From Methylorubrum populi (GTDB lineage: Bacteria; Pseudomonadota; Alphaproteobacteria; Rhizobiales; Beijerinckiaceae), in assembly GCF_002355515.1 (NCBI RefSeq), contig NZ_AP014809.1, positions 310,001-374,000 on the forward strand: a stretch of 64,000 bases of DNA, in the 5' to 3' direction. Position numbers and translations under genes: made by a program. The notes below the pieces were generated by a model, which saw only the letters and a program-made list of their open reading frames with translations, searched no databases and was not told the origin of the DNA. This document shows positions 5,680 to 14,471 of this stretch, piece after piece (positions within the stretch are counted from its first letter, which is position 1; each line of letters begins with the position of its first letter).

Positions 5680-5839
5680 GGTGCCTGACGTGGCGAACGC
5701 ATCCAGCAGCCGGGAGCATCCGGCTGGACCTCGGCGCCATTGTGTTCCGGCGTGCAACTTTGACCCCTTGATGGAGTGGGCCGCTGGAGGTGGACGGATT
5801 GGACAAGGCTGATTGACCGGCTGGCTGGGTCTTCGAAGG

Positions 5840-6199
5840 ATGAAGACCATGGCCCGACACCGTTCCCACAGCGTCGCGTTCAAGCGTCAGGTCGCGCAGG
5901 AGTACCTGTCGGGCGAGACCCTGCACGGCTTGGCCAAGCGCCACGATCTCTCGCGTAACCTCGTGCGCGTCTGGGTGCAGAAGTACGAGACGGGCGCGTT
6001 CGACGACGACGCGGCCGCCGCCGACACGATCCAGGCCTATGAGGCTCGCATCGCCGCGCTCGAACGGCTCGTCGGGCGGCAGGCGCTTGAGCTTGAGTTT
6101 TTAAAGGGGGCTCTGCGCAACGGACCGCCGCCGCGAAGCGGGCCTATGTCCGTGATCACCGGCCCGGCAGCCTCTCTGTCGCCGCGGGATGCCGGCTGA
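5840..6199 (+). CDS. IS3-family transposase OrfA
   Basis: About 119 residues. It has an N-terminal helix-turn-helix ([20 protein letters not shown] and [20 protein letters not shown]) followed by a leucine-zipper-like helix ([19 protein letters not shown]), the standard OrfA design for binding the terminal repeats and multimerising. The ATG at 5840 follows CGAAGG closely; an ATG nine bases later is possible. The stop overlaps the orfB ATG (ATGA-type junction at 6197-6201), but the functional transposase is probably made by a -1 frameshift at 6100-6106, after which the last 30 OrfA residues are replaced by OrfB sequence. Confidence 0.82.
6100..6106 (+). other. Slippery heptamer T TTA AAG for -1 frameshift between orfA and orfB
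   Basis: Read in the orfA frame the bases are T TTA AAG, an X XXY YYZ heptamer. The -1 frame is open without a stop from here to the orfB ATG at 6199 and encodes a typical OrfAB linker (including [21 protein letters not shown]). That open linker is strong support for a fused OrfAB transposase. Confidence 0.7.
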
Positions 6200-6996
6200 T
6201 GGGTCTGGCGCGCTCTACCTACTACGATGCCCCAACGCGGGCTGCCGACGACACCGCCCTCGTCGAGGCCATGGCCGCGGTCTGCGACGCGTTCGAAGCC
6301 TACGGCTGGCGCCGCGTCCAGGCGGCCCTGCGCCAGCAGGGCTGGCGGGTGAACTATAAGAAGGTCCGCCGCCTCATGCGGGAGCACGACCTGCAACCGC
6401 GCATCCGGCGCCGCTACGTCACGACCACCGACAGCGATCACGACAGCCCGATCTTCCCGAACCTGGCCCGAGACATCGTGCCGGACGGGCCCGACCAGCT
6501 CTGGGTCGCGGATCTGACCTACGTCGCGGTGACGGGCGGCTTCGTCTACGTCGCGATCATCCTGGATGCCTGGTCGCGGCGGGTGGTCGGCTACGCGCTC
6601 GGCCGGTCGATCGACGCCCGCCTGACCATCGCTGCTCTGCGCGCGGCGATCGAGCGGCGTCGGCCGGCGCCAGGACTGACCCACCACACGGACCGCGGCA
6701 GTCAATACGCTGCCGAGGCGTATCGAAAGGTGCTGGCCGAGCATGGTCTCGTCGGCTCGATGGGCCGGCGCGGCAATCCCTACGACAACGCCAAGGCCGA
6801 GAGCTTCATGAAGACGCTCAAGGTCGAGGGGGTATACCCGATGGCGTTCGAGACCTTCGCCGAGGTGGCGGCTGAGCTGCCGCACTTCATCGAAGAGGTC
6901 TATAACACCCGCCGCCTGCACTCCGCGCTCGGTTATCTGAGCCCCGTGCAGTTCGAGGAGCAGCACACCCGGCAGACGGTCAAAACCGCCGCCTGA
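6199..6996 (+). CDS. IS3-family transposase OrfB (DDE integrase domain)
   Basis: 265 residues. An N-terminal helical region ([20 protein letters not shown], the HTH_21-like domain) precedes the retroviral-integrase core. The DDE triad is visible in context: [19 protein letters not shown] (first Asp), [14 protein letters not shown] (second Asp) and [17 protein letters not shown] (Glu), followed by the usual [15 protein letters not shown] end. All catalytic residues are present and the frame is unbroken, so the element could still be active. Orf B is in the -1 frame relative to orfA and probably contributes to an OrfAB fusion made at the upstream slippery site. Confidence 0.88.
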
Positions 6997-7055
6997 TCGT
7001 GCCCACCGTCAGGGGCCCACTCCAATCCAGGGTCGATGTTCAACGCTGTTTGACA

Positions 7056-7591
7056 GCCCAACGGGGCTGCGAGCCGGCAGCGCTCACCGCACGGAGCCCA
7101 GCCATAGGGGCGCGCCATGTTGGTGGCAGCTGCCGTCTCATCCAGGAACACCAGCCGATCCGGATCGAGCTCGGGCTGTGCCTCGAACCACGCCTCGCGA
7201 GCAGCTCTTAGGTCCGCGCGCTCCTGCTCAGCTGCGTACATTGCCCCTTTTTCCAGCTGATCCCGTGGCGGGCAAAGAAGCGCGACAGCCCGCTCGTGCT
7301 GGTCTGGATGCCCTGCTCAGCCAGCCGATCGCGTAACTCGCGCAGGAAAAGACGCGGCTCCTGCTTGGAGATCCTCAGGATCAGCCCGGCATGCGCCTCT
7401 ATTCGCTTCGAGGTGTGATCGCCGCCCATCGGCTTGGAGGCGAGTTGGCCCTCGTGGCGGAAGCGCTCCGACCAGCGGCTGGCACTCGACACGCTGACCC
7501 AAAAGCGGGCTGCGGCGCGATGGCAGGAAGCCCCCGCCGCCACGGCAGCCACGACACGCTCGCGCAGGTCTACAGACAGGGGTGAAGGCAT
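7056..7591 (-). pseudogene. IS630-family transposase remnant, truncated at 3' end
   Basis: The minus strand from ATG 7591 encodes the N-terminal HTH part of an IS630-type transposase (LSVDLRERVVAAVAAGASCH, SRFFARHGISWKKGQ). The frame then changes by -1 at the AAAAAGGGG run (7244-7252) and continues with the start of the DDE domain (YAAEQERADLRAAREAWFEA, then DRLVFLDETAAATNM and GWAPCGERC). Homology stops around 7056, about 30 bases before the end of the neighbouring IS3-type element, so the C-terminal half with the remaining catalytic acids is missing. The frame change at an A-run could have been programmed in the parent element; the truncation certainly kills it. Confidence 0.72.
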
Positions 7592-7734: not shown

Positions 7735-8019
7735 TCAATTCGGGATCAGCTCCCGGGCGGGACCGCCCGTCTCTTGTCCTCGGCCGCGGGCGTAAGGCGG
7801 CAGGGCGGGGTTGTTGGCGTTGGCCGAGTCCGTGTCGGTCTCGAAAAAGTCGTTGCGCGGCGCTGCGCCGGCCGTCCAGGCGGAGGCGAGCGCGGACGTG
7901 CAGAGGACCGAACAAGCCCGCTCCGGCGCGATAGTCTTCGCGCTGGCGCCGCCGCTGGCCACGGCGAGAGCGCCGACGGCGACGAAAAGGGCGAGAGCTT
8001 TATGCTTGATGCTGTGCAT
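7735..8019 (-). CDS. Small secreted protein of unknown function, in the ECF sigma regulon
   Basis: 94 residues starting MHSIKHKALALFVAVGALAV, a clear Sec signal peptide with a likely cleavage after GGASA. The mature part begins KTIAPERACSVLCTSALASA (two cysteines four residues apart) and ends in a polar, Asn/Pro-rich tail. I do not recognise a family. The ATG at 8019 is chosen because AAGGAGCC sits 6 bases upstream and the signal peptide begins there; the longer in-frame ATG at 8109 would overlap the promoter. The gene is divergent from the ECF sigma operon and its upstream region carries the same GGAAT-N16-CGTCT element as the sigma gene, so the sigma factor probably transcribes it. Confidence 0.65.
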   Translation of the reverse strand: MHSIKHKALALFVAVGALAVASGGASAKTIAPERACSVLCTSALASAWTAGAAPRNDFFETDTDSANANNPALPPYARGRGQETGGPARELIPN

Positions 8020-8075: not shown

Positions 8076-8101
8076 AGACGCCGCTTTCCGCAGATAATTC
8101 C
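8076..8101 (-). promoter_or_regulatory. ECF-type promoter (GGAAT-N16-CGTCT) for the small secreted-protein gene
   Basis: On the minus strand GGAAT (8101-8097) and CGTCT (8080-8076) are separated by exactly 16 bases. The same pair with the same spacing lies upstream of the divergent sigma gene at 8181-8206. The -10-like element is 57 bases before the ATG at 8019. Confidence 0.65.
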
Positions 8102-8180
8102 CGGCGCATCTCGAAAAAATTACGGCCTCATCGTTCCGCGCCGGGCATGCGGTGCGACGAAGAAAAAACCCGGAGACCTT

Positions 8181-8206
8181 GGAATAAACCTCAAGAAACG
8201 GCGTCT
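8181..8206 (+). promoter_or_regulatory. ECF-type autoregulatory promoter (GGAAT-N16-CGTCT) for the sigma operon
   Basis: GGAAT (8181-8185) and CGTCT (8202-8206) with a 16-base spacer resemble the AAC/AAT-type -35 and CGT-type -10 recognised by ECF sigma factors. It lies 78 bases before the GTG of the sigma gene and is duplicated in the divergent direction, which makes chance unlikely. Confidence 0.65.
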
Positions 8207-8283: not shown

Positions 8284-8814
8284 GTGAGCGATATGGTCCG
8301 CCTCATCGAGCCGCTCATCCCGGCCCTTCGCCGCTATGCCCGCGCGCTTCTGCGCAATCCGACCGATGCCGACGATCTCGTGCAGGACTGCCTGGAGCGC
8401 GCCATCGGCCGCTGGCCTCAGCGCCGAGCGGACGGCGACGTGCGCACGTGGCTCTACGCCATCCTCCACAATCTCGCCGTGAGCCAGATGCGCCAGCGCG
8501 CCCGCCGCGGCACGTCCCTACCCGTCGAGGACGCCCCGGAGGCGGTCCTCGCGGTTGCCCCGAACCAGCACGAGGGACTGCTCCAGCGCGACCTGACGGC
8601 TGCGCTCGATGCGCTGCCCGAGGAGCAGCGCGGCGTGCTGCTGCTCGTGAGTGTGGAGGGGCTCTCCTACGCCGAGGCGGCCCAGGTGCTCGCCATCCCG
8701 ATCGGGACGGTGATGTCGCGCCTGGCCCGCGCCCGCGACCGGATGATCCAATTCATGGACGGGGAGCGCGCATCCGCCCCCGCCGCGCGCCCACTGCTCA
8801 GGAGGGTGAAGTGA
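8284..8814 (+). CDS. ECF-type RNA polymerase sigma factor
   Basis: A 176-residue group IV sigma factor with region 2 (RNPTDADDLVQDCLERAIGR and DVRTWLYAILHNLA) and region 4 (LPEEQRGVLLLVSVEGLSY, AIPIGTVMSRLARAR). The GTG at 8284 is chosen because AGGAG (8272-8276) is 7 bases upstream; an in-frame ATG at 8215 lacks a site and the ATG at 8293 is too far from it. The stop overlaps the anti-sigma GTG by four bases, the usual coupling of a sigma/anti-sigma pair. Downstream genes for a catalase-type peroxidase and a cytochrome b561 point to an oxidative or sulfite-related stress response; I recall similar gene sets in the ECF26 group. Confidence 0.88.
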   Translation: MSDMVRLIEPLIPALRRYARALLRNPTDADDLVQDCLERAIGRWPQRRADGDVRTWLYAILHNLAVSQMRQRARRGTSLPVEDAPEAVLAVAPNQHEGLLQRDLTAALDALPEEQRGVLLLVSVEGLSYAEAAQVLAIPIGTVMSRLARARDRMIQFMDGERASAPAARPLLRRVK

Positions 8815-9584
8815 CCGTGCGCCCAATCACCGAGGACGACATCCAGGCCTTCATCGATGACCGCCTGGAGGCGGCGCGCCGGGCCGAGGTCGAGGTGTAC
8901 CTCGCCAGCCATCCCGATCTCGGCCGTCGCGTCGAGCGCATGCGCGGGCTCGGCGACGCCTTGCGCGACGTCTTCGCGCCGGTGACCGCCGAGCCGGTCC
9001 CGGCCCAACTCAATCTCGCCCATCTCGTCGCGGCGCGGCGGCGCCCGCGTCTGCCGGCTTGGCAGGCGGCCGCCGCGGCCGTGCTGCTGGCACTTGGCGG
9101 CCTCGGTGGTTGGGGCCTGCGCGGCACGCTGTCGGCGCCCATGACCGGCGTCGATGCCCTGGCCCAGGAGGCGAGCGCGAACTACGCCGTCTATGCCCCT
9201 GACCGCCTCCGCCCGGTCGAACTCGCGGCGAGCGACGGTGACGAACTCGCCCGCTGGTTCTCCACCCGGCTCGACCGCCGCGTCGGCGTGCCGGACCTGA
9301 GCGCCTCCGGCTACCGGCTGATGGGCGGGCGCCTCGTCGCAACGCAGCACGGCCCGGCGGGCCTGCTGATGTACGACGACCCGCGCGGCACGCGGCTCGT
9401 CATGCTGATGCGGCCCATGGCCCAGCCGGGCGACGCGCCGATGCGCGAGCATCGGACGGGGGCGGCCACCGGCTACGCCTGGGCCCAGGACGGGCTCGGC
9501 TACAGCCTCGTCGGCGCGAGCGATCCCGCCATCCTGCATCCGCTCGCCAACGAAATCCGCCGCACGACCGCGACGAACACCTGA
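8811..9584 (+). CDS. Transmembrane anti-sigma factor
   Basis: 257 residues starting at a GTG coupled to the sigma stop (GTGA), with AGGAGGG about 5 bases upstream. The N-terminal 70 residues match the cytoplasmic anti-sigma domain pattern (DIQAFIDDRLEAARRAEVEV, YLASHPDLGRRVERMR) but have no HxxxCxxC zinc motif. One membrane helix follows (PAWQAAAAAVLLALGGLGGW, about 80-100), then a periplasmic domain of about 150 residues ending in the GYAWAQDGLGYSLVG region. It should hold the sigma factor at the membrane until a periplasmic signal arrives. The long reading frame reaching upstream over the sigma gene is a shadow and was not used. Confidence 0.85.
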   Translation: MTVRPITEDDIQAFIDDRLEAARRAEVEVYLASHPDLGRRVERMRGLGDALRDVFAPVTAEPVPAQLNLAHLVAARRRPRLPAWQAAAAAVLLALGGLGGWGLRGTLSAPMTGVDALAQEASANYAVYAPDRLRPVELAASDGDELARWFSTRLDRRVGVPDLSASGYRLMGGRLVATQHGPAGLLMYDDPRGTRLVMLMRPMAQPGDAPMREHRTGAATGYAWAQDGLGYSLVGASDPAILHPLANEIRRTTATNT

Positions 9585-9591
9585 GGCTTCC

Positions 9592-10704
9592 ATGACCCTG
9601 CTGCACCGACTGACCGGAGCTCCACCCGGAATGAGCCCGCGTGCCCTGATGCTGCGCGTCTGCGCCATCGGGGCGCTGCTCGCCGGCACGACCGGGGCCT
9701 TCGCCGTTGCGGGCGGCTGGCTGTCGCCGGCCGCGCTGACCCCGGCCCGCATCGTCGATCGCTTCGAGCAGGTGAACGGCCCGCATCCGGGCTTCCGGCG
9801 CAACCATGCCAAGGGCGTGTGTGTGGTCGGTGAATTTGCCGGCAACGGGGCCGGTATCGCCCTCTCGAAGGCGGGGGTGTTCGCGGCGGGCCGCGTGACG
9901 CCGGTCGAGGGACGGTTCGCGCTCGCGGGTGGGCAACCCTACGCGGCCGACGCCGCGACGACCGTGCGCAGCCTCGCTCTGCGGTTCCGGCTGCCGGACA
10001 GGGAGGAATGGCGCACGGGCATGAACGCCCTTCCGGTCTTTCCCGTGCGCACGCCCGAGGCGTTCTACGAGCAGTTGCTTGCGGGGAAGCCCGACCCGGC
10101 CACCGGCAAGCCCGACCCGGAGCGCATGAAGGCGTTCTTCGCCGCCCATCCGGAAAGCGCGAAGGCAGCCACCCTGATCAAGGCCCGCACGATCACCGCG
10201 GGCTTTGCCGACAGCACCTTCCGCAGCCTGAACGCCTTCCGGTTCGTGGCCGCCGACGGCCATGCCACTCCGGTGCGCTGGGCCCTCGTGCCCGAGCGGC
10301 CGGGGGTGCAGGAGACCGCCGCGCAAGCCGCGCGGACGGACAAGAACTACCTGTTCGACGACCTCATCGCGCAGCTTCAGCGGGAGCCCCTGCGCTGGCA
10401 CCTCGTCGTCACGATCAGTCGGGCGGACGATGCCACCACCGACCCGACCCTGCCCTGGCCCGCCGACCGCGAGAACGTGGACGTGGGCACCCTGACCCTC
10501 ACCGGCGCGACGCCTGAGGAGGCCGGCAATTGCCGGGACGTCAACTTCGATCCGCTCGTCCTGCCGGACGGCATCGCCCCGTCCGACGATCCGCTGCTGA
10601 GCGCCCGCTCGGCCGCCTATGCCCGCTCCTTCACCCGCCGGGCGGGCGAGGCGACGAGCCCCAGCGCCGTGGCCGCGACGGCCGACCCAGGAAACGCCCC
10701 GTGA
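9592..10704 (+). CDS. Catalase-related heme peroxidase (SrpA-like), membrane-anchored or exported
   Basis: 370 residues. An N-terminal hydrophobic helix (about 20-45) targets it to the periplasm. The rest has the minimal catalase fold: the distal-histidine region GPHPGFRRNHAKGVC, SLALRFRLPDREEWRTGMNA, and NAFRFVAADGHATPVRW. Proteins of this group are much shorter than true catalases, lack the usual C-terminal domains, and act as peroxidases with an organic or protein electron donor. The cytochrome b561 encoded directly after it (one-base overlap) is a plausible electron donor from the quinone pool. The gene is third in the ECF sigma operon. Confidence 0.85.
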   Translation: MTLLHRLTGAPPGMSPRALMLRVCAIGALLAGTTGAFAVAGGWLSPAALTPARIVDRFEQVNGPHPGFRRNHAKGVCVVGEFAGNGAGIALSKAGVFAAGRVTPVEGRFALAGGQPYAADAATTVRSLALRFRLPDREEWRTGMNALPVFPVRTPEAFYEQLLAGKPDPATGKPDPERMKAFFAAHPESAKAATLIKARTITAGFADSTFRSLNAFRFVAADGHATPVRWALVPERPGVQETAAQAARTDKNYLFDDLIAQLQREPLRWHLVVTISRADDATTDPTLPWPADRENVDVGTLTLTGATPEEAGNCRDVNFDPLVLPDGIAPSDDPLLSARSAAYARSFTRRAGEATSPSAVAATADPGNAP

Positions 10705-11255
10705 TGCAATCCACCCGCTTCAATGGACCGGCCCGCCTGCTGCACTGGAGCATGGCGGTACTGATCCTAGCCATGCTGTTCATCGGCGTCGCAATGGTAG
10801 CCTCGCTCGCCGATTACGGCACGCTGGTCGCGCTGCATCGCCCGCTCGGCATCCTGATCCTGATTCTGGCCGTCCTGCGCCTCGTCAACCGCTGGCGTCG
10901 CCCCCCACCGCCGCTGCCCGCGGATCTGCCCCCGTGGCAGCGGCGGGCCGCGCAGGTCTCGCATGTCGCCCTCTACGGGCTGATGCTGGCCATGCCGCTC
11001 GTCGGATGGGCGATGCTGTCGGCGGGGCGCCTCCCCGTCGCGGTGGTCGGGCCTATGGTGGTGCCGCCGATCCTGCCGCAGAGCCCAATGTTCTACGCGT
11101 GGCTGCGCGAACTCCACTCTATCCTGGCCTACGGGCTGTTTGGCCTGATCCTGGCGCATCTCGGGGCAGCCCTACTGCATGGACTGATCCGCCAGGATGG
11201 CGTCTTGAGCAGCATGGCGCCTTGGCGTTCGCGGCGCTCGGCTGGGAATTTATGA
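10704..11255 (+). CDS. Cytochrome b561 family protein
   Basis: 183 residues with four membrane helices. Candidate heme-ligating histidines sit in LLHWSMAVLIL, LHRPLGILIL, VSHVALYGLML and LHSILAYGLFGLILAHLG, as in the bacterial CybB/YceJ family of di-heme quinol oxidoreductases. The ATG at 10704 overlaps the last base of the peroxidase stop; a GTG three bases upstream is equally possible. As the last gene of the ECF operon it probably passes electrons from quinol to the periplasmic peroxidase. The C-terminal 20 residues are basic and cytoplasmic. Confidence 0.88.
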   Translation: MQSTRFNGPARLLHWSMAVLILAMLFIGVAMVASLADYGTLVALHRPLGILILILAVLRLVNRWRRPPPPLPADLPPWQRRAAQVSHVALYGLMLAMPLVGWAMLSAGRLPVAVVGPMVVPPILPQSPMFYAWLRELHSILAYGLFGLILAHLGAALLHGLIRQDGVLSSMAPWRSRRSAGNL

Positions 11256-11469
11256 GCAGCGACCTCTAACAGGTCTCGCTTACTTCGGCTGTCCTGCAAC
11301 AAGCTGACATCCGAGGTGCACCCACCGTAGGTCCGGATCGGGTCGTAAGCAGCGATCCAAGCCCGCCGGCGCCAACATCGGCTTGTGCCGCGGAGAGCCG
11401 TCATTCGACATTGGGCTCAGCGGCAGCATTGGGTTTCTCATGGCGGGCTCCTCAACCCAGGAGCCTGTC

Positions 11470-12099
11470 ATGCCCGAGGTCGTCACTGTTCCCACCAGCA
11501 CACGTGTTCCCTGGAACCGCGGCCGTATCGTCGGCCCAAAACCGCCGCTGAAGCCGAAGCACATCTGGGCCCTACGCACGCGCCTACAGCTCGCTAACTG
11601 GACGCGAGACCTTGCCCTGTTCAACCTTGCCGTCGACAGCAAGCTGCGCGGGTGTGATCTCGTCGGCCTGCGCGTGAGCGACATCTACTTGGGCGACGCC
11701 GTACGTCTTCGAGCGACCGTCTGCCAGCGCAAGTCCGGCAGGCCGGTTCCGTTCGAGATCACCGAGCCGACGCGCGAGGCTCTCGCGGCTTGGCTGACGA
11801 CGCGCAGGTTGAAAGCCGGCGACTGGTTGTTTCCCAGCCGGAGTCGACATGGAGAGCATCTAACGACGCGGCACTACAGTCGGCTGGTAGACCGCTGAGT
11901 TGCCCTGATCGGCCTGGACCCTTCGGCGTTCGGCACGCACAGCCTGCGCCGCACGAAGGTCGCGCTAGTCTACAAACGCACCGGCAATATCCGAGCCTGC
12001 CAGTTGCTCATTGGCCATACCAAGCTGGAGAGCACGGTTCGCTACCTCGGCATTGAGGTTGACGACGCACTGATCCTCTCAGAGCAGACCGAGATCTGA
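11470..12099 (+). pseudogene. Tyrosine recombinase/integrase interrupted by a single in-frame TGA
   Basis: From ATG 11470 (with CAGGAG 6 bases upstream) the frame encodes the start of a short site-specific integrase: LRTRLQLANWTRDLALFNLA, then SKLRGCDLVGLRVSD, the first catalytic-Arg box. It stops at TGA 11896-11898 after SRLVDR. Reading on in the same frame gives a perfect C-terminal half: GTHSLRRTKVALVYKRTGNI (HxxR), then LLIGHTKLESTVRYLG (His and Tyr), ending at TGA 12097-12099. So only one codon is wrong, and TGG (Trp) to TGA is the simplest explanation. No tRNA or attachment repeat is visible beside it. Confidence 0.8.
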
Positions 12100-12429: not shown

Positions 12430-13173
12430 GTGGATCACATCGACCATGTCCTGATCGTCGACGACGACCGAGAAATCCGCGACTTGCTGTCGAACTACCT
12501 CAGGAAAAACGGCCTCCGCGTGACGCTGGCCGCGGACGGGCGGCAGATGCGCGCGTTCCTCGACGCCGACCGGGTCGACCTCGTCGTGCTCGACATCATG
12601 ATGCCGGGCGATGACGGTCTCGTCCTGTGCCGAGAGCTGCGCTCGGGCAGGCACAAGGCCACCCCGGTCCTGATGCTGACGGCCCGCAGCGACGAGACGG
12701 ACCGGATCGTTGGCCTGGAGATGGGTGCGGACGACTACCTGGTGAAGCCGTTCGCGGCCCGGGAACTCCTCGCGCGGATCAAGGCCGTGCTCCGCCGTAC
12801 CCGGATGCTGCCTCCCAACCTCCAGGTGACCGAGGCAGGCCGGCTTCTCGCCTTCGGGGCGTGGCAGCTCGACACCACCGCCCGTCACCTGATCGATGCG
12901 ACAGGAACGGTCGTCCCCCTCAGCGGCGCGGAGTACCGGCTTCTGCGTGTGCTGCTCGATCACCCGCAGCGGGTCCTGTCGCGCGACCAGTTGCTCAACC
13001 TGACACAGGGCCGTGATGCCGAACTGTTCGACCGATCCGTCGACCTGCTCGTCAGCCGCCTGCGGCAGCGGCTGAAGGACGATGCCCGCGAGCCCGCCTA
13101 CATCAAGACGGTGCGTAGCGAAGGCTATGTCTTTGCCATGCCCATTACCATCGCGCAGGCGCGCGAGGGATGA
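12430..13173 (+). CDS. OmpR-family response regulator
   Basis: 247 residues. The receiver domain has VLIVDDDREIRDLL, the phospho-acceptor D55 in VVLDIMMPGDDG, TARSDE and the conserved lysine in DYLVKPF. The C-terminal winged helix has LSGAEYRLLRVLLDHPQRVL and RSVDLLVSRLRQRLKDD and ends with the conserved IKTVRSEGYVF. The GTG at 12430 is preferred because the receiver begins four residues later and a G-rich stretch lies just upstream; the longer frame starting at 12241 has no family similarity in its extra 63 residues. It is translationally coupled to the kinase (ATGATG overlap at 13170). Confidence 0.88.
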   Translation: MDHIDHVLIVDDDREIRDLLSNYLRKNGLRVTLAADGRQMRAFLDADRVDLVVLDIMMPGDDGLVLCRELRSGRHKATPVLMLTARSDETDRIVGLEMGADDYLVKPFAARELLARIKAVLRRTRMLPPNLQVTEAGRLLAFGAWQLDTTARHLIDATGTVVPLSGAEYRLLRVLLDHPQRVLSRDQLLNLTQGRDAELFDRSVDLLVSRLRQRLKDDAREPAYIKTVRSEGYVFAMPITIAQAREG

Positions 13174-14471
13174 TGGCACCCCTTCTGGTTTGGCCGGGCA
13201 GCCTGCGGGGCCGCCTGTTCCTGATCCTGCTCGCAGGTCTCCTGAGCGCTCAGCTGCTCTCGTTTGCGGTCACGAGAGCCGAGCGGGACCAGACGGCGCG
13301 CGCCGTCATGCTGACGACGCTCCAGCGCGACGTCGTCGTCGCGGTCGCGCTGCTCGATCGCCTGCCGGCCGCCGAGCGGTCCGAATGGCTCCCGCTCCTC
13401 GAAAGGCCGACCTATCGCTTCGCGCTCGGCTCCGGTTCGCCGGGGACTGCGGCGCTCTCGTCCCGTCTGACAATGATCGCGGACGAGATACGCGCCGCGT
13501 TGGAGCCGCGCTTCCCCGTTCGGTTCGATGCGGTGTCCGGGTCGCCGGTGCGACTGCAGGGGCACGTCGCCCTGAGTGACGGCTCGGCCCTCACCATCGC
13601 GGTCCAGCCGACCCTGCGGCCCGTGGCATCGTGGCTGCCCGTCGCGCTGGCCCTGCAGCTGCTCGTGCTCGTCGCCTGCGTCTGGTTCGCCGTGCGGCTC
13701 GCCGTCCGGCCGCTGACGCGCTTCGCGCAGGCCGCCGACGCGCTGGAGCCGGGGCGACCGGCCACGCCTTTCGCGGAGGCAGGGCCCGATGAGGTCGCGC
13801 GCGCCGCGCGAGCCCTCAACGCGATGCAGGAACGGGTGTCCCGCCACCTCGACGAACGCGTCCGCATCCTCGCGGCGATCTCCCACGATCTCCAGACACC
13901 GATCACCCGGATGCGGTTGCGCGTGGAGACAGGCGTCGAGGGCCTCGAACAGGACCGGATCCTCGGCGATCTCGAGGCGATCGAGACGCTCGTCCGCGAG
14001 GGGATCGCCTACGCCCGCAGCGTGCACGGAAACGTCGAGCCACCCACCCGCCTCGATCTGCGCGCCTTTCTCGAGAGCATCGCCTTCGACTACCAGGACA
14101 CAGGGTGCGATGTCGCTGTCTCCGTCCTGCCGGAGGTGACGATCGTGACGCGCCCGCAAGCCCTGCGCCGGATCCTGACGAACCTGATCGACAACGCGAT
14201 CCGATATGCCAACCGGGCAGAGCTCGATCTGCAGGTCGTCCAGGGAAGGATCACCATCGCGGTACTGGATCGTGGACCCGGCATCCCCGCGGACAAGCTC
14301 GATGCCGTGCTGCTTCCCTTCGTCCGGCTGGAGGGATCGCGCAGCCGTGAGACCGGCGGCACCGGACTCGGCCTCGCCATCGCCGATCAGCTTGCCGCCG
14401 CGATCGGCGGACGGCTCAGGCTCAGCAACCGCCCGGGCGGCGGCCTGGAGGCGGCCGTCACGCTCTCGTGA
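13170..14471 (+). CDS. EnvZ-type sensor histidine kinase
   Basis: 433 residues: a first membrane helix (LRGRLFLILLAGLLSAQLLS), a periplasmic sensor of roughly 120 residues, a second helix (WLPVALALQLLVLVACVWFA), HAMP, then the H-box AAISHDLQTPITRMRLRVE with H239, the N-box LTNLIDNAIRYA, the G1 box DRGPGIP and G2 TGGTGLGLAIADQL. All catalytic elements are intact. It overlaps the response regulator gene by four bases, so the two form one operon. The signal and targets are unknown; the convergent ABC-F gene on the other strand is not obviously linked. Confidence 0.87.
   Translation: MMAPLLVWPGSLRGRLFLILLAGLLSAQLLSFAVTRAERDQTARAVMLTTLQRDVVVAVALLDRLPAAERSEWLPLLERPTYRFALGSGSPGTAALSSRLTMIADEIRAALEPRFPVRFDAVSGSPVRLQGHVALSDGSALTIAVQPTLRPVASWLPVALALQLLVLVACVWFAVRLAVRPLTRFAQAADALEPGRPATPFAEAGPDEVARAARALNAMQERVSRHLDERVRILAAISHDLQTPITRMRLRVETGVEGLEQDRILGDLEAIETLVREGIAYARSVHGNVEPPTRLDLRAFLESIAFDYQDTGCDVAVSVLPEVTIVTRPQALRRILTNLIDNAIRYANRAELDLQVVQGRITIAVLDRGPGIPADKLDAVLLPFVRLEGSRSRETGGTGLGLAIADQLAAAIGGRLRLSNRPGGGLEAAVTLS

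What the first reader, a model, noticed from the sequence alone, without database searches (positions are those of the whole stretch)
8076..8206. Twin divergent ECF promoters define a small regulon
The same element, GGAAT-N16-CGTCT, with identical spacing occurs on both strands of the 264-base interval between the ECF sigma gene and the small secreted-protein gene. Two matches of 10 fixed bases at equal spacing in one intergenic region, each pointing at a gene start, is hard to explain by chance. It predicts autoregulation and adds the secreted protein to the regulon.
Basis: seen in the sequence. Interest (0 to 1): 0.72.

Follow-up and report, generated by a model that had tools for sequence, protein, structure and literature searches.

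The report
Paired stress-sigma promoters beside secreted-protein gene
Between a stress-response sigma factor gene and a small secreted-protein gene lie two back-to-back copies of a known kind of promoter; both are kept in related Methylobacterium species, so the sigma factor very likely switches on itself and the secreted protein.

Summary
GGAAT-N16-CGTCT lies at 8076-8101(-) and 8181-8206(+), the only matches in the window. The 5.94 Mb genome holds 9 others, 7 of them inside predicted ORFs.

In 21 of 21 examined loci with both sigma gene and small gene, both divergent sites are present. In 9 loci with a sigma but no detected small gene, the small-side site is absent (0 of 9) and the sigma-side site present in 7. 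The small-side -10 box ends 56 nt before the ATG in 20 of 20 named loci. The element equals the published ECF26 consensus, -35 GGAAT / -10 CGTC (PMC6527743), so the promoter type is known. The sigma gene runs on into an anti-sigma, a catalase-related protein and a cytochrome b561.

New here: the secreted protein belongs to a family, found almost only in this genus, with a C-terminal GRGQ(E/Q)TGGPAR signature. Another class of the family carries EcfG general-stress promoters (GGAAC-N16/17-CGTT) in 20 of 21 loci. Transcription was not tested, a few further target sites cannot be excluded, and ECF26 membership by tree was inconclusive.

The parts
8076..8101 (-). Promoter of the small secreted-protein gene: -35 GGAAT (8097-8101), 16-base spacer, -10 CGTCT (8076-8080), followed by GTCAGG
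   Evidence: Exact match; present in 21 of 21 examined loci that have sigma and small gene, 0 of 9 loci with sigma but no detected small gene; 56 nt to ATG in 20 of 20 named loci
8181..8206 (+). Promoter of the sigma operon: -35 GGAAT(AA) (8181-8185), 16-base spacer, -10 CGTCT (8202-8206)
   Evidence: Exact match; GGAAT-N16-CGTC kept in 21 of 21 loci with both genes and in 7 of 9 with sigma only
7735..8019 (-). Small secreted protein, 94 aa: Sec-type signal peptide (by eye), then a C-terminal signature NNPALPPYARGRGQETGGPARELIPN
   Evidence: ORF and signal-like N-terminus; family alignments; no Pfam family above cut-off; AlphaFold2 gives no confident fold, mean pLDDT 53
8284..8814 (+). ECF sigma factor (sigma2 and sigma4 domains), likely start GTG 8284; a longer ORF is open from ATG 8215
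   Evidence: Pfam PF22029, PF04542, PF08281; orthologs; start region
8811..9584 (+). Anti-sigma factor: N-terminal domain, one hydrophobic segment, C-terminal domain taken to be periplasmic; overlaps the sigma stop
   Evidence: Sub-cut-off matches to two anti-sigma models; orthologs 63-93% identical in the genus beside the sigma; two loci, L084 and L097, show an anti-sigma relative without a detected sigma
9592..10704 (+). Catalase-related haem protein with an N-terminal hydrophobic segment (by eye)
   Evidence: PF00199, E 4.8e-30
10701..11255 (+). Cytochrome b561, overlaps the catalase-related gene by 4 bases
   Evidence: PF01292, E 6.5e-31

Best explanation
The interval holds two divergent, independent promoters of the ECF26 type. 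At rest the membrane anti-sigma factor (8811-9584) holds the sigma factor. A periplasmic stress signal, unknown but probably oxidative judging by the catalase-related protein and cytochrome b561, releases it. Sigma-RNA polymerase then fires rightward, making sigma, anti-sigma, the catalase-related protein and the cytochrome b561 (positive feedback, with the co-made anti-sigma ending the pulse), and leftward, making a small exported protein with a leader of constant length. The small protein is the class A member of a Methylobacterium family whose class B members sit under EcfG-type general-stress promoters. Shown here: the sites, their conservation, their co-occurrence with the small gene, the gene order, and the family with its two promoter types. 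Inferred: actual transcription, co-transcription, which sigma acts, the signal, and the protein's role.
For: Exact sites. Genome rarity. Both sites in 21 of 21 loci with both genes; the small-side site is missing in 9 of 9 loci with sigma but no detected small gene. Constant 56 nt from -10 box to ATG: 21 of 21 loci (scored as 53 nt to the codon before ATG) and 20 of 20 named loci (17 directly, 3 after allowing for a match that began inside the protein); these two sets largely overlap. The distance between the two sites varies from 76 to 113 bases, which fits two separate promoters rather than one palindrome. In 111 congeneric genomes GGAATAA-N14-CGTCTGTC gives 22 hits, all at class A small genes (the pattern was derived from such loci). 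The motif equals the ECF26 consensus -35 GGAAT / -10 CGTC (PMC6527743 passages) and cross-species GGAATA/GT (PMC6180224, section 7 and section 6 part 1). Of eight S. meliloti promoters that I picked from that paper's table, six have GGAAT with a 16 or 17 spacer before a -10 box and two differ in the first base; four have exactly CGTCT. Relatives of this sigma carry GGAAT-N16/17-CGT(C/T) within 500 bases upstream in 13 of 27 loci L015-L041, counted by me.
Against: There is no transcription data. The tree does not group this sigma with the one ECF26 reference I could fetch, RpoE6, and in a search of this genome with RpoE6 the window sigma ranks only fourth. A second, 58%-identical sigma (2189138) could recognise the same sites. 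In the window the small-side -35 reads GGAATT, while the other aligned loci have GGAATA, so this copy may be weaker; the tightened pattern misses the own genome and G241. Two relatives from other genera (L045, L046) have no such site beside their sigma. Catalase-related genes without a detected sigma neighbour show no such motif within 700 bases upstream (0 of 24 loci), so the link to catalase is through gene order only. Intergenic matches elsewhere with open frames downstream (L007, L231, L271, L272) and a site before a gpmA-like gene (L229) leave the regulon size open.
Confidence: 0.86

Rival explanations
1. The sites are real ECF promoters, but the acting sigma is (also) the paralogue at G000:C1:2189138 or another ECF with overlapping specificity.
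For: The paralogue is 58% identical; cross-activation among RpoE1, RpoE4 and RpoE6 targets is documented in S. meliloti (PMC6180224, section 7).
Against: The small-side site goes with the small gene beside this sigma in 21 of 21 loci. No GGAAT-N15-17-CGT(C/T) site was found in the 12 kb around the own-genome paralogue (L047).
Confidence: 0.2
2. The two sites are one operator, an inverted repeat bound by a repressor or activator, and not two promoters.
For: They are an inverted repeat on opposite strands.
Against: The distance between them varies from 76 to 113 bases; the sigma-side site stands alone in 7 of the 9 loci without a detected small gene; spacing inside each site is fixed at 16, as for a -35/-10 pair; the sequence equals mapped ECF26 promoters.
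Confidence: 0.03
3. Chance match of a 10-base pattern.
For: Nine other exact matches occur in the genome, two of them outside predicted ORFs.
Against: Two facing sites in one interval are conserved in 21 of 21 loci with both genes.
Confidence: 0.01

Closest known systems
ECF26 sigma factors RpoE4/RpoE1 of Sinorhizobium meliloti and SigE/RpoE1 of Starkeya novella, with the sorT/sorA, rpoE4 and SMc01418-rpoE1 promoters (PMC6527743, PMC3511301, PMC6180224)
   Same: Promoter consensus -35 GGAAT / -10 CGTC; small target set; anti-sigma with a membrane segment encoded next to sigma; autoregulation of RpoE1 and RpoE4; RpoE1 also drives a signal-peptide protein gene (SMc01418).
   Different: Targets there include sulfite oxidase genes; here the gene cluster holds a catalase-related protein, a cytochrome b561 and a small exported protein. 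SMc01418 lies in the same operon as rpoE1; here the small gene is divergent. SMc01418 was not compared in sequence.
rpoE6/SMa0142 divergent locus on pSymA (ECF26)
   Same: A target gene divergent from the sigma gene with an ECF26-type promoter, GGAATA...CGTTC, at the sigma gene's 5' side.
   Different: The target is a serine protease, and the published table gives rpoE6 itself a promoter with RpoD/RpoH-like motifs.
EcfG (ECF15) general stress response of Methylobacterium extorquens (PMC4814048)
   Same: Two-box ECF promoter with a 16/17 spacer; class B relatives of the small protein carry this kind of promoter.
   Different: Consensus GAAC-N16,17-C/GGTT; controlled by PhyR/NepR; the window's sites are GGAAT/CGTCT.

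Membership tests
ECF sigma factor | sigma2 and sigma4 domains only, about 175 aa | tested here: met
   PF04542 and PF08281
ECF26 regulon | Promoter consensus -35 GGAAT / -10 CGTC | tested here: met
   against the consensus in PMC6527743 and PMC6180224
ECF26 regulon | Sigma groups with ECF26 references in a tree or group model | tested here: inconclusive
   Only RpoE6 could be fetched; it did not group with the window sigma and finds it only fourth in this genome. Both score best on NCBIfam PRK12511 below its cut-off, RpoE6 by only 0.4 bits over the next model, while an EcfG-like own sigma scores best on PRK12547
ECF26 regulon | Adjacent anti-sigma with a membrane segment and periplasmic domain | tested here: met
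   ORF 8811-9584 overlaps the sigma stop; hydrophobic stretch near residues 81-103 by eye; sub-cut-off anti-sigma model hits; co-transcription and topology not tested
ECF15 / EcfG regulon | Promoter GGAAC-N16/17-CGTT | tested here: not met
   No match in the window on either strand
ECF26 regulon | Transcription dependent on the sigma factor | not testable with these tools
   Needs RNA data

The most novel reading that the evidence does not exclude
The small exported protein belongs to an apparently lineage-restricted family (Methylobacteriaceae) whose members have been placed under two different stress sigma systems: class A under the ECF26-type promoter with a leader of constant length, class B under EcfG promoters. 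The nearly invariant C-terminal signature GRGQ(E/Q)TGGPAR is a shared recognition element for one periplasmic partner, making the family a common output of, or a feedback link between, two envelope-stress regulons.
Probability: 0.3. Interest if true: 0.6.

Novelty: new member of a known kind. Interest (0 to 1): 0.42.

Why it matters
It turns a two-site guess into a candidate regulon of five genes with strong comparative support in plant-associated methylotrophs: an ECF26-type sigma, its anti-sigma, a likely periplasmic catalase-related/b561 pair, and a secreted protein of unknown role. The secreted family carries promoters of two stress sigma classes, so it offers a compact readout to test how ECF26-type and general stress responses divide envelope stress in this genus. 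The listings of my searches of the open paper library named no paper on this locus or protein family; most subscription papers are not in that library.

Tried and rejected
Tested whether catalase-related/b561 genes without a detected sigma neighbour carry GGAAT or GGAAC promoters: 0 of 24 loci within 700 bases upstream; two of these (L084, L097) still show an anti-sigma relative. Looked for further regulon members in the own genome: GGAATA-N15-CGTC gives 10 sites, one of them ours. Of the other nine, seven lie inside predicted ORFs, and two do not: L231, and L229 between genes that look by eye like dapB and gpmA, in a promoter-like position; I treat L229 as likely chance. The ORF scorer missed the window's own small gene in its control. 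A recheck for any open frame downstream shows that L007, L231, L271 and L272 have frames of 200 codons or more within 250 bases, some perhaps shadows of genes on the other strand, so extra targets are not excluded. AlphaFold2 of the small protein gave no confident fold, so no fold search was made. A tree to place the sigma in ECF26 was inconclusive. In one search, class C and other named members that are neither class A nor class B-like show neither motif upstream (0 of 18). L202 was labelled 'other' by the script but is class A. L221 (Enterovirga) was also labelled 'other' but is class B-like: it has no forward EcfG motif, only one on the reverse strand. Pfam has no family for the small protein; the UbiA hit at E 0.022 is below its cut-off.

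Full report
What is there. The window lies in a Methylobacterium/Methylorubrum genome (5.94 Mb; the window is C1:310001-374000). The genus is inferred from the named relatives of the small protein and the best plasmid-collection hit of the sigma, Methylobacterium bullatum. GGAAT-N16-CGTCT occurs exactly twice in the window, at 8076-8101(-) and 8181-8206(+). The sites point outwards from the 264-base interval between a small secreted-protein gene (7735-8019, -) and an ECF sigma gene (8284-8814, +). The sigma gene is followed, overlapping or within a few bases, by an anti-sigma factor, a catalase-related protein (PF00199) and a cytochrome b561 (PF01292).

Is it more than chance? The genome has 11 exact matches against 1 for the reversed pattern. 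Among the 9 others, 7 are inside predicted ORFs and 2 are not. With a 17-base spacer there are 7, of which 5 are inside ORFs. The ORF scorer is crude: in its control it missed the window's own small gene. A recheck found open frames of 200 codons or more within 250 bases of some intergenic sites (L007, L231, L271, L272), so the regulon may have a few more members. The pair in this interval is nevertheless unusual, and the real test is conservation.

Comparison. The catalase-related protein was searched in all 111 genomes held for the genus. I examined 50 stretches around its better matches (not every match; several of 43-46% identity and one split match were left out), 5 stretches from an earlier sigma search, and the window: 56 loci. 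Thirty-two have a related sigma next door, and two of these (L113, L119) are cut by contig ends. Of the remaining 30, 21 have the small gene and all 21 have both motifs. The other 9 have no detected small gene: 0 of 9 have the small-side motif and 7 of 9 the sigma-side motif (the two misses, L045 and L046, are from other genera). Some loci are near-identical (for example L115 and L116), so these are not fully independent events. The 24 loci without a detected sigma neighbour show no such motif before the catalase-related gene. The distance from the small-side -10 box to the ATG is constant at 56 nt: 21 of 21 (scored as 53 to the preceding codon) and 20 of 20 named class A loci, two sets that largely overlap. 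The distance between the two promoters varies from 76 to 113. In a base-by-base comparison the boxes are more conserved than spacer or flanks, but those rows were picked by the motif, so that comparison is partly circular; the co-occurrence counts above are not.

A scan with the tightened small-side element GGAATAA-N14-CGTCTGTC over 111 genomes gave 22 hits in 20 genomes. I compared each place with the small-protein places, and all 22 lie just upstream of a class A small gene (reversed control: 1 hit). The pattern was derived from such loci, so finding them again is expected; that nothing else was found is the result. The window's own site reads GGAATT and G241's reads GGAATAC, so neither is caught by that pattern.

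Relation to known systems. PMC6527743 (passages read) gives -35 GGAAT / -10 CGTC for ECF26 sigma factors from 5'RACE and reporter assays; PMC6180224 (passages; section 7 and section 6 part 1) gives GGAATA/GT and lists mapped promoters. Of eight that I picked from its table, six contain GGAAT with a spacer of 16 or 17 before the -10 box; the other two differ in the first base; four have exactly CGTCT. The S. meliloti sorT promoter is itself GGAAT-N16-CGTCT. The element is therefore of a known type. The sigma itself could be compared only with RpoE6. The tree did not group them, RpoE6 finds the window sigma only fourth in this genome, and NCBIfam ranks both highest on the same sub-threshold model (RpoE6 by only 0.4 bits) and an EcfG-like own sigma on another. 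I therefore call it ECF26-type by promoter and layout, with phylogenetic membership open.

The secreted protein. It has a Sec-type signal peptide by eye, no Pfam family and no confident fold (mean pLDDT 53), but a nearly invariant C-terminus. A congeneric class A query found relatives in 84 of 111 genus genomes at E up to 0.01. An order-wide profile search matched 9 of 397 genomes, all of the genus, scoring only a limited number of candidates per genome. The named-species scan returned 43 loci, 42 Methylobacterium/Methylorubrum and one Enterovirga MAG. The large protein database could not be asked, so absence elsewhere is not shown. Three classes stand out, assigned by me from the sequences. 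Class A sits by the sigma under the GGAAT element. Class B (RRPELPYYQQGRGQQTGGPARNLLPDDGLH) has GGAAC-N16/17-CGTT within 200 bases upstream in 20 of 21 fetched loci, against 0 of 21 on the reverse strand. Of five named class B or B-like loci, four have it; the Enterovirga one has it only on the reverse strand. That is the EcfG consensus of M. extorquens (PMC4814048 passages). The remaining named members have neither motif (0 of 18). The fetched paralogue loci were 40 chosen from the longer list: 21 class B, 1 class A and 18 others without either motif. The own genome has one class A and one class B copy (G000:C1:4617106, L140).

Mechanism. Most likely an anti-sigma-controlled, self-amplifying switch with two outputs: a periplasmic haem enzyme with its cytochrome partner, and a small exported protein. 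The signal is unknown. Redox stress is favoured by the gene content (inference); sulfite or related sulfur compounds are the alternative, known for other ECF26 members (PMC3511301 passages).

Noticed in passing
7735-8019 (-) and G000:C1:4617106-4617345 (L140): The small secreted protein is one of a family with C-terminal GRGQ(E/Q)TGGPAR; class B copies carry EcfG-type promoters in 20 of 21 fetched loci, class C copies neither motif.
   Followed up: partly
L044 7080-7474 (-): In a more distant congener a different small, apparently exported protein lies between two co-directional GGAATAA...CGTCT sites upstream of the related sigma, resembling the SMc01418-rpoE1 layout of S. meliloti.
   Followed up: partly
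G008:C1:3031584, G083:C29:241531, G130:C15:20970, G147:C44:268750: Class C small-protein genes lie about 6.5-7.4 kb from the gene of a paralogous sigma in these four genomes, without either promoter motif.
   Followed up: no
5813-7591: Transposase genes next to the small gene: an IS3-like pair (5813-6996; integrase core PF00665) and, from the ORF sequence by eye, an IS630-like element on the minus strand (7208-7591).
   Followed up: no
11383-11898: Fragment that looks, by eye, like a phage-type integrase, downstream of the cytochrome b561; a response regulator/histidine kinase pair follows at 12433-14468.
   Followed up: no
L229 1501-1525 (-) = G000:C1:2872854-2872878: GGAATA-N15-CGTC site between genes that look by eye like dapB and gpmA, about 82 bases before the gpmA-like start; possible extra target or chance.
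   Followed up: partly
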